From a virus, in the IMG/VR virus record IMGVR_UViG_3300047673_000355, positions 1-39,783 of that record: a DNA stretch of 39,783 nucleotides; one strand, given 5' to 3'. How positions within the stretch are numbered: position 1 is the stretch's first letter; the number at the start of each line of letters is the position of its first letter. Below, one piece after another: positions 1 to 39,783 of this stretch. A program made the position numbers and the translations under genes. The notes beneath the pieces were generated by a model. That model searched no databases. It worked only from the letters and a program-made list of their open reading frames with translations, and was not told the DNA's origin.

Positions 1-127
1 GGGCAGATCACCTCCCGGCAGCTCGCCCCGTCCGAGGCCCGTGCGATCGAGAACCGGCAGCCGTTCACCGAGGACCAGCTCGCCGAGTTCGACCGCCTCT
101 TCGGGAAGGGCACCAGCCCCACGCCCC
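1..127. repeat. Terminal direct repeat, left copy (assembly overlap)
   Basis: These 127 bases are identical to 39657-39783. They lie in the portal coding sequence, and the reading frame continues correctly across the join. The exact length of 127 matches a common maximum assembler k-mer, so the repeat most likely reflects a circular assembly graph and not a biological terminal redundancy. One copy should be removed when the genome is closed. Confidence 0.95.
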
Positions 128-26686: not shown

Positions 26687-26946
26687 GCATGATCAAAGTT
26701 CCGTTGGAGTTCCGTTGCAGTGCCGTTGAAAGTGCCGTTGGAAATCGGCATCCCCGCAGGTCACGACCGGTCAGTTCCATCAGTGCCGTTGAAACGAGCT
26801 ATCCAGTTCCGTGCGCACGCAAGAAGGTCAATGCCAAGAAACCGGCCCTAACGGCACTGATGGAACTGCCACCCAAGGTGACCTGCGGAAACGGCAGTTC
26901 CATCAACGGCACTGCAACGGAACTGCCCCTCGGCGGTGCCCGATGA
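26683..26946 (+). CDS. Small protein encoded across iteron-like repeats
   Basis: This 87-aa frame is joined to both neighbours by exact ATGA overlaps (26683 with the prim-pol stop and its own TGA with ATG 26943), so it is probably translated. Yet most of its sequence is made of repeats of GTTCCGTTG and GTGCCGTTG in both orientations, giving peptides such as VPLEFRCSAVESAVGN and CGNGSSINGTATELP. Part is basic (CARKKVNAKK). No family is recognised. The DNA rather than the peptide may be what is selected here. Confidence 0.5.
   Translation: MSMIKVPLEFRCSAVESAVGNRHPRRSRPVSSISAVETSYPVPCARKKVNAKKPALTALMELPPKVTCGNGSSINGTATELPLGGAR
26698..26923. repeat. Iteron-like repeats with a 19-bp inverted repeat (candidate replication origin)
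   Basis: The 9-mer GT(T/G)CCGTTG recurs at 26698, 26709, 26720 and 26732 (11-12 bp spacing) and 26783. Inverted copies are CAACGGCAC at 26904 and CAACGGAAC at 26915 (11 bp apart), plus a near copy at 26849. In the middle, a 19-bp inverted repeat pairs 26772-26790 with 26850-26868. One-turn spacing directly behind a prim-pol/helicase gene is what an initiator-bound origin looks like. Confidence 0.7.
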
Positions 26947-30920: not shown

Positions 30921-31274
30921 ATGGACACTCGGCATCTTCGCATGCCCGCTGCCCAGAGCAGCACCCCGGCCGACCGGCAGATTCTCGCCGTCGGCATCCT
31001 CAGCCGGACCGCCGCCGGGCGCACGATCACCACCGTGCGCACCGCCGCCGGGACCACCGGCACGGTCACCGCCCTCGTCCCGTCGCAGCAGACGCTCGAC
31101 AGTGCGGGCAGCGTGTACGTCACGGCCGCCCAGCAGGCCCACGAGGAGCACTGCGCCGACTGCCGCGACCGCGCCACCGAGGCCGCCGCCCTTCGCGCGG
31201 AGAACGGCCGCTCGATGGCCCGCCGCGACCGCGTGCAGCTCGACCTCCACCTCCCCACCGGCGGTGCCCGATGA
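30921..31274 (+). CDS. Hypothetical protein with C-terminal CxxC
   Basis: This 117-aa protein's middle part is beta-rich and Thr/Ala-rich (RTITTVRTAAGTTGTVTALV), ending with EEHCADCRDRATEAAALRAE, a CxxC followed by a helix, which could bind zinc or form a small helical cap. ATG 30921 has AAGG upstream. Its end overlaps the next ATG. No family is recognised. It starts a coupled gene chain that leads into the membrane-protein operon. Confidence 0.6.
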   Translation: MDTRHLRMPAAQSSTPADRQILAVGILSRTAAGRTITTVRTAAGTTGTVTALVPSQQTLDSAGSVYVTAAQQAHEEHCADCRDRATEAAALRAENGRSMARRDRVQLDLHLPTGGAR

Positions 31275-31525
31275 GCACCCCCACGGCCGCGCTCACCGCG
31301 GAGACGATCGCGCTCCTCCTCGCCCTGGCCACCCGGGTTGAGACGAAGCGGCCCCGTGCCGAGATGACCGAGGACATCCGTCTCGCCTCGGCGCTCACCG
31401 TCGCCCACGACGAGGGCGGCGCCTACCGCGACCTCCTCGCCGCGGCCCCGCCGGTCCGGCACCAGACCCGCGCCGAGTACGCCACGCTCCTCCGCCTCAT
31501 CGCCCAAGGGGTGGTGGGACGATGA
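31271..31525 (+). CDS. Small helical hypothetical protein before the membrane operon
   Basis: This 84-aa protein is all-alpha (LTAETIALLLALATRVETKR, DIRLASALTVAHDEGGAYRD, RAEYATLLRLIAQGVVGR). Its start and stop overlap both neighbours by ATGA, so it is translated together with the membrane proteins. It may be a soluble partner. No family is recognised. Confidence 0.6.
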   Translation: MSTPTAALTAETIALLLALATRVETKRPRAEMTEDIRLASALTVAHDEGGAYRDLLAAAPPVRHQTRAEYATLLRLIAQGVVGR

Positions 31526-32409
31526 AGCACTTCACCACGCCGCTGGTCTGGCCGGCCACCGCACTGTCCGCCGCGTCGCTCGCCTGGACCACCTGGTCCC
31601 TCGTCGACCTCCTCGGTACCGGGCCCATTGGCCTCACCGTCGCCGCCGGCGCCGACATCGTCTGGGCGTCCGTCATCGCCGCCGAAGCACGCGGGCTCCG
31701 CGTCGCCGGGCGCCGGTGGGCCGTCCCCGCGATCGGCTGGGCCGCGCTCGCCGCGGTCGCCGGTCTCCTCGTCTGGCACGGCCTCAACGCGCACTCGCTC
31801 GCCATGGCCGTCGCCGGGCCGCTGCTCCCCCTCGGGGCGAAGGTCGTGTGGATGCTCGCGCTCACCGACCTGCGCGACCCGGCCGCCCTCACCGACGACG
31901 AGACCGCGCTCCTCGCCAAGATGGAGCGGGGGCTGACCTTCGAGGAGGCTCAGCACCGGATCGAGATGCGACGCCGCGAGATGACCGCTGAGCTCTACCT
32001 CGCCGAAGTCGACGTTGACTTCAAGATCGAGCGCAGCCGTCAGGACAAGGGGCGCGAGCTGATCCGCCACCGCCCGCTGGAGCTGAGCCCGGTTGAGCCC
32101 GTGGCTCACACCCGGGTTGAGCCCGCTGAGCCCGAGGGCGAGCCGCTGCACCGTCTGCACTCGTTTGTGCAGGCCAGCACCCCTGGGCCTCGGGCTCACC
32201 GCTCCGGTCAGCCCGAGGCCCAGCCCTTCGGCTTCACCGCGCCGCCGACCACCCCGACAGCCCAGTCGGCTCAGCGGGCTCAGGCCGTCGAGCGGGTGGC
32301 TCAGCTCCTGGCTCAGGACCCGGGGCTCACCTCGGCCCGCGTGGTCGAACTGCTCGACGTCAGCCTCGCCACGGCGAAGCGCTACCTCCGCGAGGCCCGG
32401 CAGACATGA
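31522..32409 (+). CDS. Membrane protein with four TM helices and C-terminal HTH (Spd/DUF2637-like)
   Basis: This 295-aa protein has four predicted TM helices at about 8-31, 34-56, 66-88 and 93-114, a charged helical middle (LLAKMERGLTFEEAQHRIEM), a Pro/Glu-rich linker, and a C-terminal helix-turn-helix at about 258-292 (RVAQLLAQDPGLTSARVVEL, VSLATAKRYLREARQT). This TM plus HTH layout recalls DUF2637-type and Spd proteins of Streptomyces conjugative elements. It heads five coupled membrane genes. A membrane-tethered DNA-binding role is possible. Confidence 0.65.
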   Translation: MKHFTTPLVWPATALSAASLAWTTWSLVDLLGTGPIGLTVAAGADIVWASVIAAEARGLRVAGRRWAVPAIGWAALAAVAGLLVWHGLNAHSLAMAVAGPLLPLGAKVVWMLALTDLRDPAALTDDETALLAKMERGLTFEEAQHRIEMRRREMTAELYLAEVDVDFKIERSRQDKGRELIRHRPLELSPVEPVAHTRVEPAEPEGEPLHRLHSFVQASTPGPRAHRSGQPEAQPFGFTAPPTTPTAQSAQRAQAVERVAQLLAQDPGLTSARVVELLDVSLATAKRYLREARQT

Positions 32410-32555
32410 CTGCCCTCCTGTGGCTCTTCCCGGTCGCCGCCGTCGGCTCCGGGAGCATCCTCGCCGCGCTCGTCGCCCACGAGATGCCCCGCATCCTCAC
32501 CGCCCTCGCCCTCGTGCTCACCCTCGCGGCCCTCGGCGCCGCCCTCCTCCACTGA
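32406..32555 (+). CDS. Very small two-TM membrane protein (Spd-like operon)
   Basis: This 49-aa product has two hydrophobic helices (LLWLFPVAAVGSGSILAALV and LTALALVLTLAALGAALL) joined by AHEMPRI. The ATG overlaps the previous stop (ATGA). Tiny membrane proteins are typical members of actinomycete plasmid spread operons. Too short for family assignment. Confidence 0.6.
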   Translation: MTALLWLFPVAAVGSGSILAALVAHEMPRILTALALVLTLAALGAALLH

Positions 32556-32563
32556 GGACCCAC

Positions 32564-33133
32564 ATGCCTGAGCCGATCACCCCGAGCCGGATCATCCCGG
32601 CCGGGGCCCCGCTCCCCGGCGGCAGCATCCCGCCCCCGCCTCCCGCGCCGCCGGTCTTCCCGCCGATCCCGGCCCCCGGAGGCGAGTGGTGGCGCCGCCC
32701 CCCGCCGCCAGCGCCCGTCGCCGTACCGCCGCCGATCGACATCACCATCCACATCGACCCGTCCGCCTGGCTCCCCGCGCAGCCGGAGCCCGCCCCCGGG
32801 CCTCCGTGGTGGAGGCGGTTCCGCCTCGGCTACAACGCCGCCTGCATCATCTGCTCGTTCCCCGCGACCGGACTCTGGGCCGATGTCCTCCGCTCCGTCC
32901 GCGACGCCGACGCCCTCGCAGGCGCCTGGGTCATCGCCGCAGTGCCGTTCGGTGTCGCAGCCGTCGCCGACAACGCGCATCGCATCCGTGCCGCCCACGC
33001 CGACCCGGATCTGTGGGCCCCGAAGGTGCGGGCCGCCGCCGCCCGGACCGCCCTCTGGACCACGATCCTCGGCCCCGGTATCGCCCTCCCCGTCACCACG
33101 ATCACCTACCTCATCACCGGAGTTCGCCCATGA
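32564..33133 (+). CDS. Proline-rich membrane protein (SpdB-like)
   Basis: This 189-aa protein has a long Pro-rich N-terminal half (about 1-80, PPPPPAPPVFPPIPAPGGEW). Then a short hydrophobic segment at about 90-108 (GYNAACIICSFPATGLWADV), a second near 117-135 (ALAGAWVIAAVPFGVAAVAD) and a last one near 165-186 (ILGPGIALPVTTITYLITGV). Pro-rich membrane proteins of this kind are frequent in spread operons. GGACC precedes ATG 32564. The stop overlaps the next ATG. Confidence 0.62.
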   Translation: MPEPITPSRIIPAGAPLPGGSIPPPPPAPPVFPPIPAPGGEWWRRPPPPAPVAVPPPIDITIHIDPSAWLPAQPEPAPGPPWWRRFRLGYNAACIICSFPATGLWADVLRSVRDADALAGAWVIAAVPFGVAAVADNAHRIRAAHADPDLWAPKVRAAAARTALWTTILGPGIALPVTTITYLITGVRP

Positions 33134-33744
33134 GCGTCACCCTCGCCGCCGGACTCAGCGGCGCCACCTCGGCCACCATCACCTCCGCCGGCCTCGCCGT
33201 CGGGCTCGCACTCCTCGCCGTCGAGCACGTCACCTGGTGGCGCGGCGCGACCGCTTCCTCCGGGGGAGGGGGCAAGAAGGGCGGCGCCCCGGCCGAGGGC
33301 GGCGGCAAGGCGAAGGACCCGCGGGCCCTGATCCCGTTCTGGTCCGGTGTGACCTTCGGTACCCTCGCGGTCGCCTGCCCCGCCGGACTCCTCGGCTACG
33401 GTGCCGGGTTCCTCCGCTGGGGTGGCAACACCGTGGGCGGCACCGTCATGTCGTGGATGACCGGCCAGAGCGCACCCACCGTCGCCACCGGCAGCGCACC
33501 CAGCCTCGACGGGTACGGCGCCCTCGTCGTCACCGCGCTCGTCATCGTCCTGTGGCTGCTCCGCAAGAAGTTCGGCAAGGCCGTCAAGGGCCGTTGGAAG
33601 AAGGGCGTGGTCGTCGGCGTCCTCATCGGCATCGGCACCGGTGTATTCGCCATGGTCGGCAACCTCGTCGTCCCCGGGGCGAACGAGATCGGCGCCTGGG
33701 CCCTCAACGGGCTGATCCACGGCGACCTCGGGAGCATGCTGTGA
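33130..33744 (+). CDS. Polytopic membrane protein (Spd-like operon)
   Basis: This 204-aa protein has four hydrophobic stretches at about 12-34, 66-94, 128-144 and 160-182. A Gly/Lys/Ala-rich loop (about 42-62, GGGGKKGGAPAEGGGKAKD) separates the first two, and RKKFGKAVKGRWKKG lies between the third and fourth. The strong positive charge suggests a cytosolic loop. ATGA overlap upstream and GTGA overlap downstream make it part of the coupled chain. No transporter motif is seen. Confidence 0.65.
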   Translation: MSVTLAAGLSGATSATITSAGLAVGLALLAVEHVTWWRGATASSGGGGKKGGAPAEGGGKAKDPRALIPFWSGVTFGTLAVACPAGLLGYGAGFLRWGGNTVGGTVMSWMTGQSAPTVATGSAPSLDGYGALVVTALVIVLWLLRKKFGKAVKGRWKKGVVVGVLIGIGTGVFAMVGNLVVPGANEIGAWALNGLIHGDLGSML

Positions 33745-34559
33745 CCGACCAGACCACCGCTCAGTGGCTTCGAGCCGCCGTCGAGCGCATCGCGGTCGGC
33801 TCCAGCAGGATCTGCCTCGTCTGCGCCCGCCAGCTCGCCCAACGGCTCCTCGGCAAGGGCCGGGCCTGGAAGGGCAACATCGGCGACTGGCTCGGAGAGG
33901 CCGAAGGGCTCAACTGGGCCTTCCGTGTCGCCCTGCTCGTCGGCGCCGCCCTCCTCCTCCGGAAGGTCGGCCTGGGCGTCCTCGTCGCTCTCGGACACGC
34001 TGTCCAGTCGCCGTCCGCCCGCTGGCTCCTCTGGCCGGCCGCCGCCGTGTGGATCGTCGCCGCGTACCGGATCGGCCACCCCGACTGGGCGCCCAAGGAG
34101 ACGGCGGACCAGACCTCCACCACGGACGAACCGGCGGGCGACCCGGTCGAGGACGCCACCGTCGAGCCGGACGAGCCGACCGTCCCCGAGGCCCCCCCGG
34201 CGCCCGCCGGACCGCCCCTTCGCGACCTCCACGACGCCCTCGCCAGCATCGGCACCCCGCACGCCCACATCACCGCCCTCGCCGAGGCGCTCGACACCAC
34301 CCCCGAGCTCGTTCGCGAGACCCTCGCGGCGGCCGGCGTACCGGTCGAGGCGGTGAGGATGCGCGGGCGCGGCTCCTCCACCGGCGTCCGCGGCGGCAGC
34401 ATCCCCACCCCGCTCCCCTCCCAGAAGGGGCCCCACGGCGGCGTTGTTGCCGCAGGTCAGCCCGCCAACAACAACGACAACAACGTCACCGTGCAGCGGC
34501 ACGCAGGAGGGGCACACATCACCGTCACCCCGCCCCGCCAGGACATCCACGCCGCCTGA
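33741..34559 (+). CDS. Membrane protein with C-terminal DNA-binding-like domain (Spd/Tra-associated-like)
   Basis: This 272-aa protein starts at GTG 33741. Two TM helices lie at about 60-88 and 93-111, an acidic Pro/Glu linker at 120-165, then a winged-helix-like domain (about 165-215: LRDLHDALASIGTPHAHITA, LDTTPELVRETLAAAGVPVE) and a basic Gly/Arg segment (RGRGSSTGVRGGSIP). That C-terminal pattern recalls proteins encoded beside TraB/FtsK in actinomycete conjugative elements. No TraB is present here. It is the last of five coupled membrane genes. Confidence 0.6.
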   Translation: MTDQTTAQWLRAAVERIAVGSSRICLVCARQLAQRLLGKGRAWKGNIGDWLGEAEGLNWAFRVALLVGAALLLRKVGLGVLVALGHAVQSPSARWLLWPAAAVWIVAAYRIGHPDWAPKETADQTSTTDEPAGDPVEDATVEPDEPTVPEAPPAPAGPPLRDLHDALASIGTPHAHITALAEALDTTPELVRETLAAAGVPVEAVRMRGRGSSTGVRGGSIPTPLPSQKGPHGGVVAAGQPANNNDNNVTVQRHAGGAHITVTPPRQDIHAA

Positions 34560-34638: not shown

Positions 34639-34851
34639 ATGTCCGCAAACCGTCATTTCACCGGCGACCAGCCCGAGGACCAGATCCGCGCCGAGATCCA
34701 GGACGACATCAAGGACAGCCGTACCGCTCAGCGTGACCTCCAGGCCGCCGGCCAGCACCGCCTCGCCGAGAGCATGCGGCAGGCCGCCGACGAGGCGATC
34801 GACGAGCTCAACGACCTCGACGCCGGGACCTGGCGCCCGAAGCACGCCTGA
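34639..34851 (+). CDS. Small acidic helical protein
   Basis: This 70-aa protein starts at ATG behind GGAG. It is a long charged helix pair (DQIRAEIQDDIKDSRTAQRD, ESMRQAADEAIDELNDLD). No membrane segment or Cys. Small proteins of this type end replication operons in several Streptomyces phages, without known function. Confidence 0.6.
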   Translation: MSANRHFTGDQPEDQIRAEIQDDIKDSRTAQRDLQAAGQHRLAESMRQAADEAIDELNDLDAGTWRPKHA

Positions 34852-34936: not shown

Positions 34937-35056
34937 ATGGCACTCCCGAACATGAGCCTCGAAGAGCTTCGCCGGAAGAACGAGGCGAGCCAGCAGGCCC
35001 GCGACGCCGAGAAGCGCGGAACCGCCCCCACCGGCCAGCAGCAGACGGGACGATGA
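34937..35056 (+). CDS. Very small polar protein
   Basis: This 39-aa product begins MALPNMSLEELRRKNEASQQ and ends in TGQQQTGR. It is preceded by AGACAGGA and coupled to the next gene by an ATGA overlap. No family; supported by the ribosome site and coupling only. Confidence 0.5.
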   Translation: MALPNMSLEELRRKNEASQQARDAEKRGTAPTGQQQTGR

Positions 35057-36243: not shown

Positions 36244-36525
36244 GTGGCCAAGCGCGCCGACCTCACCGAGTACGGCTACCGCCAGGCCCGCGGCGCCTTC
36301 CTCGCCGCGAACGACGTGTGCCACCTCTGCGGCCACGCCGGAGCCGACGTCATCGACCACGTTCACCCGGTGGCGGCCGGCGCCGACCCGAGGGACCAGG
36401 ACAACTGGGCGCCCGCGCACGGCGTGCGCCGCTGCCCCACCTGCGGGCGCAACTGCAACGGCAGCAAGGGCGCAAACGTGCAGGTCAAGGGGCTGAATAC
36501 GTCCCGAGATTGGTACGGATCTTGA
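36244..36525 (+). CDS. HNH endonuclease beside terminase
   Basis: This 93-aa protein starts at GTG 36244 behind AGGGGAGG. It has two zinc-binding CxxC pairs (Cys26/29 in VCHLCGHA, Cys64/67 in RCPTCGRN) and the HNH core: Asp38-His39 (VIDHVHPV), Asn54, His59 (NWAPAHG) and a final Asn72/Lys75 (CNGSKG). In HK97-like phages, HNH proteins of this size next to terminase are needed for cos cleavage and DNA packaging. The gene is set apart from the lipoprotein by a terminator. Confidence 0.87.
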   Translation: MAKRADLTEYGYRQARGAFLAANDVCHLCGHAGADVIDHVHPVAAGADPRDQDNWAPAHGVRRCPTCGRNCNGSKGANVQVKGLNTSRDWYGS

Positions 36526-36672
36526 TCATTCCGGCTCAGATCCGGCCCGACTTTTTTGGAAGATCATCTTCCCAGCCCCGCGCCCAGCTTTTATTTTTCT
36601 CTCCCCGGGCCGATCACCACGGGGTGATCATGAACGCGGGTCGCTGACCTGCACCGATCCCCTGGAGGCGTG
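36526..36672. other. Intergenic region with dyads, candidate packaging (cos) region
   Basis: This 147-bp gap between HNH and terminase small subunit is unlike the rest of the genome: it has TTTTTT, a pyrimidine tract near 36589-36606, a 15-bp palindrome (GGAAGAT C ATCTTCC, 36558-36572) and an inverted repeat GATCACC/GGTGATC (36612-36618, 36623-36629). The base composition and position suit a packaging start or cos site. No cohesive-end sequence was identified. Confidence 0.4.
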
Positions 36673-36930
36673 ATGGCGACACCGCCCGCCGGGCCGGTTG
36701 AGCGGGCCGTGCGCTCCGACGTGGAGCAGCTCGGCGACCTGGTCCGCATCGAGCCGTCCCTCGCGGAGATGGCGTACACCCTGGCCCGCGAGATCGACGC
36801 CGGCGGTGGGGAGGACGGCAAGCTCCTGCCGCAGCTGAACCGCGAGCTGCGGCAGACGCTCGCGCAGCTGCTGGAGGGGCGGGCGACGGATGACGACGAC
36901 GACCTCGGAGACCTGGGCTCCCCCGACTGA
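36673..36930 (+). CDS. Terminase small subunit (putative)
   Basis: This 85-aa protein starts at ATG 36673, with TGGAGG upstream (a GTG at 36670 is too close to it). It is helical (GPVERAVRSDVEQLGDLVRI, AEMAYTLAREIDAGGGEDGK) and ends in an Asp-rich tail. It directly precedes the large subunit and overlaps it by 41 bp, the usual place for the small subunit. The N-terminal HTH is not obvious, so the call depends mainly on position. Confidence 0.68.
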   Translation: MATPPAGPVERAVRSDVEQLGDLVRIEPSLAEMAYTLAREIDAGGGEDGKLLPQLNRELRQTLAQLLEGRATDDDDDLGDLGSPD

Positions 36931-38452
36931 GTTCGCCGCCGACCTGAAAGAGCGGTACGGCCTGACGTGCCCGCCGCGCTGGGGGACGCCGCGCCACCCG
37001 GACCGGCCGTCGCTCGGCCCGAAGCTGTGGAAGGTCATGACGCTGCTCGGCGCCCCGCCGATGCCGTGGCAGATGTACGTGAGTGACGTGGCGTTGGAGA
37101 TCGACCCGGCCACCGGCGCGTTCGCGCACCGCGAGGTCGGGCTGTCGGTGTCCCGGCAGCAGGGCAAGACGGAGCTGCTGCTGGGGCTCCAGGTTCACCG
37201 GGCTCTGGCGTGGCCGCAGCAGAACATCATCTACGCGGCGCAGGACCGGAACATGGCGAGGCAGCGGTGGGAGGACGAGTTCTGGGAGAAGATCTCCGGT
37301 TCCTCGCTGGCCACCCGGGCCCGCATCCGCAAGAGCAACGGCAACGAGAAGATCCTGTGGCCGGCCACTCGGTCGCGCATGGGGATCACGGCCAACACGG
37401 AATCGGCCGGGCATGGTCCGCCCCTCGACCTCGGGCTCATCGACGAGGCGTTCGCCCATGGGGACGACCGGCTGGAGCAGGCGTTCTCTCCGGCCATGCT
37501 GACCCGGCCCATGGCCCAGCTCTTGTGGGCGTCGGCGGGCGGGACGACGAAGTCGGCGTGGCTGAACAAGAAGCGCGCGAACGGGCGGGCGCTCGTCGAG
37601 GAGATGTGGGCGGCGCTCGCCGAGGACCCGGCGGCGACCCGGCCGCGCGCCGCGTACTTCGAGTGGTTCGCCCCGGAGGACATGGACCGTGCCGACCCGG
37701 CGACGTGGCGGGCGACGCTGCCCGCGCTGGGGCACACGGTGACCGAGGCGATCATCGCGGCCGAGCTGGAGAAGCTCGATCCGGCGGAGTTCGACCGGGC
37801 CTTCCTCAACCGGACGAGGAAGCCGACGCCGCCCACCGACCCGAACGTGCCGAAGGCGGCGTGGCCGGGGCTTGCGGATGTGGACTCCGTGCCGGGTGGT
37901 GACGTGGCGCTGGCGGTCGACGTGTCGGCGGACCGGTCGCACGCCTCGATCGGTGTTGCGTCGCGGCGGCCGGACGGCCAGGTCCACGTCGAGTTGGTGG
38001 ACCGGCGGGCCGGGACGGCGTGGGTGGTGCCCGCGCTGGTCCGGCTGAAGGCGGCACGCGACCCGCTGCTGGTGGCCATCGCGAGCAGCGGCGCCCCGGC
38101 CGGGTCACTGATCGACGACCTGGTGAAGGCGGGGATCACCGCGCCGGAGGACAGGGATGCTCCGCACCGCGGGCACCTGGCGGTGTTGCGGACCAACGAC
38201 ATCGTCGAGGCGTGCGGGCAGATGGCCGACGCGATGACGCAGGACGCGGTACGCCACCGCGAGCAGGCGCCGCTGACTGCCGCGGTGAACGGGGCCCGGA
38301 CCCGGCGGGTCGGTGACGCCTGGACCCTCGACCGCACGAAGAGCCTGACCGACGTCGCCCCGTTCTTCGCGGTGACGATCGCCCGGTGGGCGCTGCTCAC
38401 CAAGGGGCCCGCAGTCCTGGACGACTACGACGTCCTGGACTCGATCTACTGA
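36890..38452 (+). CDS. Terminase large subunit
   Basis: This 520-aa protein cuts and drives packaging of phage DNA. The ATPase domain covers about 55-310: Walker A at about 88-94 (SRQQGKT), Walker B Asp185-Glu186 (LGLIDEAF). The nuclease domain starts near 335, with Asp344 in DVALAVDVSADRS, and further Asp residues toward the C-terminus (DDYDVLDSIY). This is the HK97/actinobacteriophage-type terminase. It overlaps the small subunit and is followed at once by a membrane protein and portal. Confidence 0.93.
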   Translation: MTTTTSETWAPPTEFAADLKERYGLTCPPRWGTPRHPDRPSLGPKLWKVMTLLGAPPMPWQMYVSDVALEIDPATGAFAHREVGLSVSRQQGKTELLLGLQVHRALAWPQQNIIYAAQDRNMARQRWEDEFWEKISGSSLATRARIRKSNGNEKILWPATRSRMGITANTESAGHGPPLDLGLIDEAFAHGDDRLEQAFSPAMLTRPMAQLLWASAGGTTKSAWLNKKRANGRALVEEMWAALAEDPAATRPRAAYFEWFAPEDMDRADPATWRATLPALGHTVTEAIIAAELEKLDPAEFDRAFLNRTRKPTPPTDPNVPKAAWPGLADVDSVPGGDVALAVDVSADRSHASIGVASRRPDGQVHVELVDRRAGTAWVVPALVRLKAARDPLLVAIASSGAPAGSLIDDLVKAGITAPEDRDAPHRGHLAVLRTNDIVEACGQMADAMTQDAVRHREQAPLTAAVNGARTRRVGDAWTLDRTKSLTDVAPFFAVTIARWALLTKGPAVLDDYDVLDSIY

Positions 38453-38463
38453 GAGGGGGCGCT

Positions 38464-38646
38464 GTGCGCGAGCAGATGACGACCTGGCTCGACTTCCTTG
38501 GACTGGTGCTCATCGCCGCCGGCACGGCCGCAGGTCTCCACCCGCTGATCGGCTGGGTGTCGGTCGCAGCAGCCGGAGCCGTCGTTCTGATCGGGTCGGC
38601 CTACGCCTCCCGGCAGACCGCGGCGAAGCGGGGCGATGACGGGTGA
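38464..38646 (+). CDS. Small two-TM membrane protein between terminase and portal
   Basis: This 60-aa protein starts at GTG 38464 behind GAGGGGG (ATG 38476 is possible). Two hydrophobic helices (FLGLVLIAAGTAAGLHPLIG and SVAAAGAVVLIGSAYA) and a short basic tail. The portal GTG overlaps its stop (GTGA). Small membrane proteins here are unusual in HK97-like head operons; no role is known. Confidence 0.62.
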   Translation: MREQMTTWLDFLGLVLIAAGTAAGLHPLIGWVSVAAAGAVVLIGSAYASRQTAAKRGDDG

Positions 38647-39783
38647 GCCTGTTCCATCGCAGGGGCGCAACGCAGAGCGCCGACCAGGTGATCCCGTCCC
38701 GCCCGGTCCAACGTGCTGGCGGGGTGACCGTCACCCCGGACACCGCGCTGCGCAACAGTGCCGTGTGGGCGTGCTTGCGGTTGCGCTCCAACCTAGTGTC
38801 GACCATGCCGGTGGACCTGTACCGCAAGGTCGGCGGGATTCAGGTGGAGGTTCCCAAGCCTCCCGTGCTGATCAACCCGGGCGGCGACCAGGTCGATATC
38901 GTGCAGTGGCTGTTCTCCACCCAGTGGGACCTGGACCGGTCCGGCAACACCTTCGGGATCATCACCGCCCGGGACGGTCTAGGGTTCCCCGCGCGCATCG
39001 AGCTGGTGCCCGTCGCCGACGTCACGGTCCGCGTACGCAAGGGGCAGCTCGACAAGTACCTGATCGGCGGGGAGACGTTCGACCCGGTCAACGTGTGGCA
39101 CGAGAAGCAGTACACGATGTCGGGTCTGCACGTCGGCCTGTCGCCGGTAGCGTTCGCGGCCTGGTCGATCGGCGAGTACCTGTCCATCCAGCAGTTCGCG
39201 CTCGACTGGTTCTCCAACGGGGCGGTCCCCTCAGCCCATCTGAAGAACACCCAGAAGATCATCGATCCCGGCGCGGCCGAGGAGACGAAGCGCCGCTTCA
39301 AGGCCGCGGTCGCGAACCAGGACCTGTTCGTCACGGGCCAGGACTGGGACTACAACATGATCCAGGCGGAGGCGGCCGGCTCCGACTGGATCGAGGCGAA
39401 GCGGTTCGGGATCGGGGACATCGCCCGGTTCTTCGACTGCCCCGGCGACCTCATCGACGCTGCTGTCTCGGGAAGCTCCGTCACCTACGCCAACATGACG
39501 CAGCGCAACCTCCAGTTCCTGATCATGTCTCTCGGCCCGGCGATCATCCGCCGGGAGAACGCGCTGTCCCGGCTCACGTCCCGGCCCCGCTTCGTAAAGC
39601 TCAACACCGACGCGCTGCTGCGGATGGACCCGCTCGCCCGGGCGCAGATGCTCGCCGGGCAGATCACCTCCCGGCAGCTCGCCCCGTCCGAGGCCCGTGC
39701 GATCGAGAACCGGCAGCCGTTCACCGAGGACCAGCTCGCCGAGTTCGACCGCCTCTTCGGGAAGGGCACCAGCCCCACGCCCC
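38643..39783 (+). CDS. Portal protein (N-terminal and central part; ends at 171)
   Basis: This gene encodes the dodecameric portal through which DNA enters and leaves the head. GTG 38643 overlaps the previous stop. Typical HK97-portal features are visible: VTPDTALRNSAVWACLRLRS near the N-terminus, then STMPVDLYRKVGG, a YLSIQQFALDWFSNGAVPSA helix, and a C-terminal FTEDQLAEFDRLFGKG stretch. The frame runs off the right end and is completed at the left end (stop at 171), giving about 394 residues in total. Confidence 0.93.
   Translation, partial: MSLFHRRGATQSADQVIPSRPVQRAGGVTVTPDTALRNSAVWACLRLRSNLVSTMPVDLYRKVGGIQVEVPKPPVLINPGGDQVDIVQWLFSTQWDLDRSGNTFGIITARDGLGFPARIELVPVADVTVRVRKGQLDKYLIGGETFDPVNVWHEKQYTMSGLHVGLSPVAFAAWSIGEYLSIQQFALDWFSNGAVPSAHLKNTQKIIDPGAAEETKRRFKAAVANQDLFVTGQDWDYNMIQAEAAGSDWIEAKRFGIGDIARFFDCPGDLIDAAVSGSSVTYANMTQRNLQFLIMSLGPAIIRRENALSRLTSRPRFVKLNTDALLRMDPLARAQMLAGQITSRQLAPSEARAIENRQPFTEDQLAEFDRLFGKGTSPTP
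39657..39783. repeat. Terminal direct repeat, right copy (assembly overlap)
   Basis: Identical to 1-127 and in the same portal frame. It shows that the window is a closed circle or a circularly permuted sequence. Confidence 0.95.

What the first reader, a model, noticed from the sequence alone, without database searches (positions are those of the whole stretch)
31271..34559. Five-gene coupled membrane operon resembling conjugative-element spread (spd) genes, in a phage
A soluble helical protein and five consecutive membrane proteins, nearly all linked by stop-start overlaps, include two with DNA-binding-like C-terminal domains, a Pro-rich protein and a 49-aa two-TM protein. This is the style of spd operons from Streptomyces plasmids and integrative elements, yet no TraB/FtsK translocase is present. 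It may be a device for prophage or phage-plasmid spread between mycelial compartments, for membrane anchoring of replication, or for exclusion.
Basis: inference. Interest (0 to 1): 0.7.

Follow-up and report, generated by a model that had tools for sequence, protein, structure and literature searches.

The report
Plasmid-style spread genes in a phage
A temperate virus of Streptomyces-type bacteria carries a compact set of membrane and DNA-binding genes related to the genes that conjugative plasmids use to spread through the bacterial mycelium, and sister viruses carry the plasmid DNA pump itself at the same place, which suggests that these viruses may move or anchor their DNA inside the mycelium the way plasmids do.

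Summary
Six coupled genes (A-F, 31271-34559) encode one soluble and five membrane proteins; B and F have C-terminal DNA-binding domains. The genome is complete (exact 127-bp terminal repeat), integrase-bearing, and has no TraB/FtsK gene and no ParA.

The Spd reading is largely right. B's membrane half is 67-68% identical to a gene in the transfer region of phage-plasmids pCQ3 and pSAM1, and is a remote homologue of pIJ101 SpdB. In other phages the same slot holds DUF2637 proteins, the family of pJV1 SpdB2. E is homologous to the gene just upstream of TraB/FtsK on a Kitasatospora plasmid. F carries a winged helix homologous to TraB's C-terminal domain, but no motor.

Close relatives of this phage (terminase 74-79% identical) carry a real TraB at the same locus; one is 56% identical to the TraB of a spdB-bearing plasmid. 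TraB and E-F never co-occur in the phage loci examined. The cassette recurs in over 20 phage contigs and in isolates VWB and TurkishDelight.

Best explanation: an exchangeable spread/transfer module in integrating phages; this phage has a TraB-less variant. The homology is strong. Intramycelial DNA movement or anchoring is inferred, not shown.

The parts
31271..31525 (+). gene A, 84 aa, soluble helical protein; 50-52% identical genes in phage loci L046 and L113; similar-looking proteins precede B in VWB and L025
31522..32409 (+). gene B, 295 aa; membrane half (about aa 1-200) of SpdB type, C-terminal HTH about aa 245-294
   Evidence: 67-68% identical to pCQ3 and pSAM1 transfer-region proteins; profile match to SpdB of pIJ101 type P 95.9, E 5.8e-9; HTH
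32406..32555 (+). gene C, 49 aa, two membrane spans; 47-58 aa counterparts in most cassettes
32564..33133 (+). gene D, 189 aa, proline-rich N-terminus plus membrane part; PHROG 15316
   Evidence: E 7.7e-44; counterparts
33130..33744 (+). gene E, 204 aa, about four membrane spans; PHROG 16379; homologue of the gene preceding TraB/FtsK on plasmids
   Evidence: E 1.6e-55; 33% over 123 aa, E 3e-12; P 99.7, E 5.6e-26
33741..34559 (+). gene F, 272 aa, GTG start; membrane hairpin 57-112, winged helix 160-217 of TraB C-terminal type, conserved tail GGVVAAGQPANNNDNN; PHROG 24067
34639..34851 (+). small gene after the cassette, closely similar in L126 (12791-13003)
34937..35056 (+). 39-aa gene after the cassette, similar in L126 (13082-13189) and L006 (10559-10678)
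36244..38452 (+). HNH-like, TerS-like and TerL genes that follow the cassette; same order follows TraB in L084
   Evidence: TerL PHROG E 5.5e-54; same order in L084

Best explanation
A-F is a phage-borne form of the actinobacterial plasmid spread/transfer (Spd-TraB) module. Shown by sequence: B is a SpdB-type membrane protein with a DNA-binding tail; E belongs to the family encoded just upstream of TraB; F sits in the slot that TraB has in sister phages and keeps a TraB-type winged helix behind a membrane hairpin, without the ATPase. Inferred: B, C, D and E form a complex in the hyphal membrane, probably at septa; F (and B) hold replicating phage DNA there by their DNA-binding domains; and the DNA is thereby moved into, or kept next to, neighbouring compartments of the mycelium before packaging. 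In sister phages TraB would be the motor; here the motor would have to come from the host (for example FtsK) or the complex only tethers the DNA.
For: B 67-68% identical over about 190 aa to genes directly upstream of traA-traB on pCQ3 and in the transfer region of pSAM1; B profile vs pIJ101-type SpdB P 95.9, E 5.8e-9; the B slot elsewhere holds DUF2637 (E 1.4e-38), related to pJV1 SpdB2 (P 84.9); E vs plasmid E P 99.7, E 5.6e-26, with the FtsK/SpoIIIE gene next on the Kitasatospora plasmid; F winged helix vs TraB C-terminal domain P 93.2, E 2.9e-7, score 45 against at most 14.4 in controls and 40 shuffles; TraB in sister phages at the same locus, one 56% identical over 674 aa to the TraB of a spdB plasmid; no phage locus with both TraB and E/F; purifying selection. 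Function of Spd proteins: PMC4170104.
Against: No motor is encoded in this genome, and no clt-like run of repeats was found near phage traB genes or the cassette. D and C have no sequence link to plasmid Spd proteins (for D; C was not comparable by profile). About half of the TerL relatives with enough upstream sequence have neither TraB nor E (16 of 31), so the module is dispensable for these phages. No experiment on any of these phage proteins was found in the papers searched.
Confidence: 0.5

Rival explanations
1. The module only anchors replicating or excised phage DNA to the membrane, for replication, partition or packaging, and moves nothing between compartments.
For: F and B join membrane spans to DNA-binding domains with no motor; it lies between replication and packaging genes; loss of spdB2 makes plasmid SLP2 less stable (cited in PMC4170104).
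Against: Sister phages carry a true translocase at this locus, and B and E come from transfer operons.
Confidence: 0.27
2. The module excludes or blocks competing phages or plasmids at the membrane.
For: Variable membrane genes that differ between related phages (B types swap freely) would suit immunity specificity.
Against: Two DNA-binding domains, homology to transfer proteins and replacement by TraB are not expected of an exclusion system. No padloc search was made.
Confidence: 0.1
3. The genes are plasmid-derived baggage kept for regulation or by chance, with no role in DNA movement.
For: Mosaic exchange of B types; absent from many relatives.
Against: Order conserved over distant phages and purifying selection on E, F and B.
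Confidence: 0.08

Closest known systems
spdB of plasmid pIJ101 (and spdB of Streptomyces sp. NBC_00859 plasmid)
   Same: four-span membrane half homologous to B; C-terminal part that in L026 is of the SpdB kind
   Different: in the plasmids it lies beside tra/TraB; window B has a different C-terminal domain
transfer region of Streptomyces phage-plasmids pCQ3, pCQ4 and pSAM1
   Same: B counterpart 65-68% identical over its N-terminal 185-203 aa; phage structural genes present
   Different: they replicate as plasmids with ParA/ParB and carry TraB (pCQ3, pCQ4) or a coupling protein (pSAM1); the window phage has no ParA and no TraB
TraB/FtsK modules in sister phages (L084, L069, L098 and others)
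   Same: same locus, B and C in front, HTH, HNH, TerS, TerL behind
   Different: TraB of about 700 aa instead of D-E-F; SpdB1-like and DUF6257-like genes between
Kitasatospora fiedleri plasmid 3 and Streptomyces NBC_01766 linear plasmid
   Same: E homologue directly upstream of the FtsK/SpoIIIE gene (K. fiedleri) or of an 834-aa gene with a TraB-like C-terminus (NBC_01766); a proline-rich membrane gene precedes
   Different: E and TraB occur together there
Streptomyces phages VWB and TurkishDelight; plasmids NBC_01281 and S. anulatus NBC_00990
   Same: cassette of the same plan
   Different: B is of other types; proteins only distantly related; unannotated or 'hypothetical' or 'membrane protein' in the records

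Membership tests
SpdB/SpdB2 spread proteins (gene B) | sequence homology of the membrane half to SpdB | tested here: met
   P 95.9, E 5.8e-9; 32% over 105 aa to pIJ101 SpdB
SpdB/SpdB2 spread proteins (gene B) | C-terminal DNA-binding domain | tested here: met
   weak HTH matches; domain differs from that of pIJ101 SpdB
SpdB/SpdB2 spread proteins (gene B) | gene next to traB | tested here: not met
   no TraB in the window; met in pCQ3, and B-slot genes precede TraB in sister phages
SpdB/SpdB2 spread proteins (gene B) | dsDNA binding, oligomers, contact with TraB, effect on pock size | not testable with these tools
   needs experiments; reported for SpdB2 of pSVH1 in PMC4170104
DUF2637 (PF10935) | match above the family cut-off | tested here: not met
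   window B has no match; L010, L069 and L060 B proteins match
TraB/FtsK translocase (gene F) | FtsK/SpoIIIE motor domain with Walker A | tested here: not met
TraB/FtsK translocase (gene F) | C-terminal winged helix of TraB type | tested here: met
   P 93.2, E 2.9e-7; single-subset comparisons were weaker
TraB/FtsK translocase (gene F) | clt site with tandem 8-bp repeats | tested here: inconclusive
   none found near the cassette; an 11-bp repeat cluster at 26697-26924 looks more like an origin
Streptomyces phage-plasmid | plasmid partition or replication genes instead of an integrase | tested here: not met
   integrase present, no ParA
AICE | integrase, replication and TraB without virion genes | tested here: not met
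   virion genes present, TraB absent
superinfection exclusion system | protection of the lysogen against related phages | not testable with these tools
   needs experiments

The most novel reading that the evidence does not exclude
Integrating Streptomyces phages move their replicating genomes sideways through the mycelium without lysis, by a plasmid-type spread apparatus that comes in two exchangeable forms: one with the TraB pump, and one, as here, in which a motor-less membrane protein with TraB's DNA-recognition domain has taken its place and works with a host motor or by tethering.
Probability: 0.3. Interest if true: 0.85.

Novelty: new variant of a known kind. Interest (0 to 1): 0.68.

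Why it matters
Transfer and spread genes are known on Streptomyces plasmids, AICEs and phage-plasmids. Finding the same kind of module, including true TraB, at one fixed locus in integrating siphophages suggests that lateral spread inside the mycelium may be part of a phage life cycle. The TraB-less variant separates the roles of the Spd proteins from that of the pump, and makes the long-open question of what Spd proteins do testable in phages that can be plated and counted, such as VWB.

Tried and rejected
Pfam and NCBIfam gave nothing beyond a weak HTH in B. tblastn with B, E and F against isolated phages found nothing; VWB came only from a fold search. Two scans of the bacterial genome collection with F gave no relatives, so hosts and frequency in genomes are unknown. 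F as a shortened TraB was first rejected with two plasmid TraB tails (P 0.4), was suggestive with subsets (P 72) and supported only with the pooled profiles: domain homology, not proof of descent by deletion. Fold search of F against the PDB gave only generic winged helices, none significant. The E model was too poor to use (pLDDT 55). D could not be tied to plasmid counterparts by profile, and C is too short to test. No clt-like repeats were found. Promoter and terminator scans told nothing.

Full report
What the window is. The window is a virus record of 39,783 bases with an exact 127-base direct repeat at its two ends, so the genome is complete, about 39.66 kb. It has a head protease, major head protein, tape measure, endolysin, holin, tyrosine integrase, a P4-type primase and a terminase large subunit, a WhiB-family protein and a DNA methylase. 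The portal gene starts near 38643 and runs off the window's end. It is a temperate tailed phage of an actinobacterium; Streptomyces as host is inferred from its relatives.

The observation. Genes A-F are present at the stated coordinates, tightly coupled, with the membrane and DNA-binding features described. D, E and F match PHROG families of unknown function strongly.

A conserved cassette. Searches of viral contigs with F, then with F alignments, gave 18 loci. Gene calls show B-C-D-E-F, or B-C-E-F, in the same order and strand. With further loci, a profile for E hits 24 of 104 loci. In the close group L010-L016, dN/dS is about 0.07-0.12 for E between most of its nearest members and 0.18-0.46 for F, so these are real, selected proteins. 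Phage VWB has the full set, unannotated in part because its gp25 and gp26 are called with wrong frames or starts; phage TurkishDelight has a distant version, gp97-gp100.

B is a spread-type protein. The first about 200 residues of window B are 67-68% identical to proteins of pCQ3 and pSAM1. On pCQ3 that gene lies directly upstream of traA and traB; pCQ4 is alike; on pSAM1 it lies upstream of a conjugative coupling protein and a terminase. These are phage-plasmids: pCQ3 and pSAM1 carry tail or capsid genes together with ParA/ParB. The B family also matches SpdB of pIJ101 and two relatives (P 95.9, E 5.8e-9). In other phages the B slot holds a DUF2637 protein, and DUF2637 is related to SpdB2 of pJV1 (P 84.9, E 6.5e-6). 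Unrelated B types in one slot, several with an HTH-like tail, suggest that the role, not the sequence, is conserved. The C-terminal part of window B differs from that of pCQ3 and pSAM1, a domain swap.

E comes from transfer operons. E is 33% identical over 123 aa (E 3e-12) to a Kitasatospora plasmid protein whose next gene is FtsK/SpoIIIE, and similarly related to one on a Streptomyces linear plasmid whose next gene is an 834-aa protein. Profile comparison gives P 99.7, E 5.6e-26. In the 16-profile all-against-all, unrelated membrane families stay at P 20 or below, nearly all at 2 or below, which serves as the background.

F and TraB. F has a membrane hairpin and a winged helix. Pooled F winged helices (phage, VWB, TurkishDelight and two plasmids) match pooled TraB C-terminal domains at P 93.2, E 2.9e-7, score 45.4; five other HTH groups and 40 column shuffles reach at most 14.4. 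With smaller sets the match was weak, so this rests on the pooled profiles.

Sister phages with TraB. A terminase search gave 79 loci. Many carry, between replication genes and terminase, B, C, two small genes and a protein of about 700 aa that matches FtsK_SpoIIIE; in L084 it is 56% identical over 674 aa to the FtsK/TraB of plasmid NBC_00859, which carries spdB, and the two small genes of this module type (compared from L069 and L105) also match that plasmid's genes. In L084 the following HTH, HNH, TerS, TerL and portal genes match the order in the window. Sixteen full-length phage TraB genes were found, and no phage locus has both TraB and E or F. On whole records, FtsK is found in 7 of 7 TraB-module records and in none of the E- or F-module records tested; two searches of the window give none. 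The sensitivity is limited: the pSAM1 coupling protein was missed, while pCQ3 TraB was found. Among 31 TerL relatives with enough upstream sequence, 11 have TraB, 4 have E, 16 have neither: an accessory, exchangeable locus. Eleven of 20 records tested have a tyrosine integrase and none of the phage records has ParA; records may be fragments.

Plasmids without a pump. The Streptomyces anulatus plasmid, which looks like a dimer of a 14.1-kb unit, has a GntR regulator, D-, E- and F-like genes and a SpdB-tailed B, a relaxase and no FtsK match. NBC_01281 is similar, with a MobF relaxase and no FtsK match. So the TraB-less form also lives on plasmids.

How it may work. According to PMC4170104, Spd proteins are needed for pocks, SpdB2 of pSVH1 is an oligomeric membrane protein that binds dsDNA and contacts TraB, and spdB2 of SLP2 aids stability. 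By analogy the phage proteins would bring replicating phage DNA to the membrane, perhaps at septa, and move or hold it there. The steps shown are homology, order, selection and exchange with TraB. The steps inferred are the complex, the septal site, DNA binding and movement. Anchoring without movement is the strongest rival.

Novelty. Spread and transfer genes on plasmids, AICEs (PMC3218068) and phage-plasmids are known. In the ten literature searches made here I found no account of this module in integrating phages or of the TraB-less form; the library lacks most subscription papers. I rate it a new variant of a known kind.

Noticed in passing
window 26697-26924: Seven copies of AGTKCCGTTG (five forward, two reverse) and none elsewhere in the genome, in the gap just after the primase gene: a likely replication origin, or a binding site for B or F.
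   Followed up: partly
window 1-127 and 39657-39783: Exact 127-base terminal direct repeat: the record is a complete genome.
   Followed up: yes
L130 (phage VWB) 17642-19508: The annotated gp25 and gp26 start in wrong places or frames over the real C, D, E and F genes of the cassette.
   Followed up: yes
L032 (pJV1) 1778-2221: The gene after the DUF2637-like spread gene of pJV1 is annotated 'Pycsar system effector family protein': a possible link of a spread protein to a membrane effector of phage defence.
   Followed up: no
CP108727.1 (L044): The 28,193-base plasmid record repeats its genes at an offset of about 14,097 bases: a dimer of a 14.1-kb plasmid.
   Followed up: no
NZ_CP061945.1: A 5.3-kb plasmid recorded from Pseudomonas sp. 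SK2 carries pIJ101 SpdB at 99.7% identity: perhaps a vector or a mislabelled record.
   Followed up: no
window 34437-34486 (F, near its C-terminus): Extremely conserved Asn-rich tail GGVV(A/G)AGQPANNNDNN in F, retained in L127 (GVVAAGQDANTNTNN); role unknown.
   Followed up: partly
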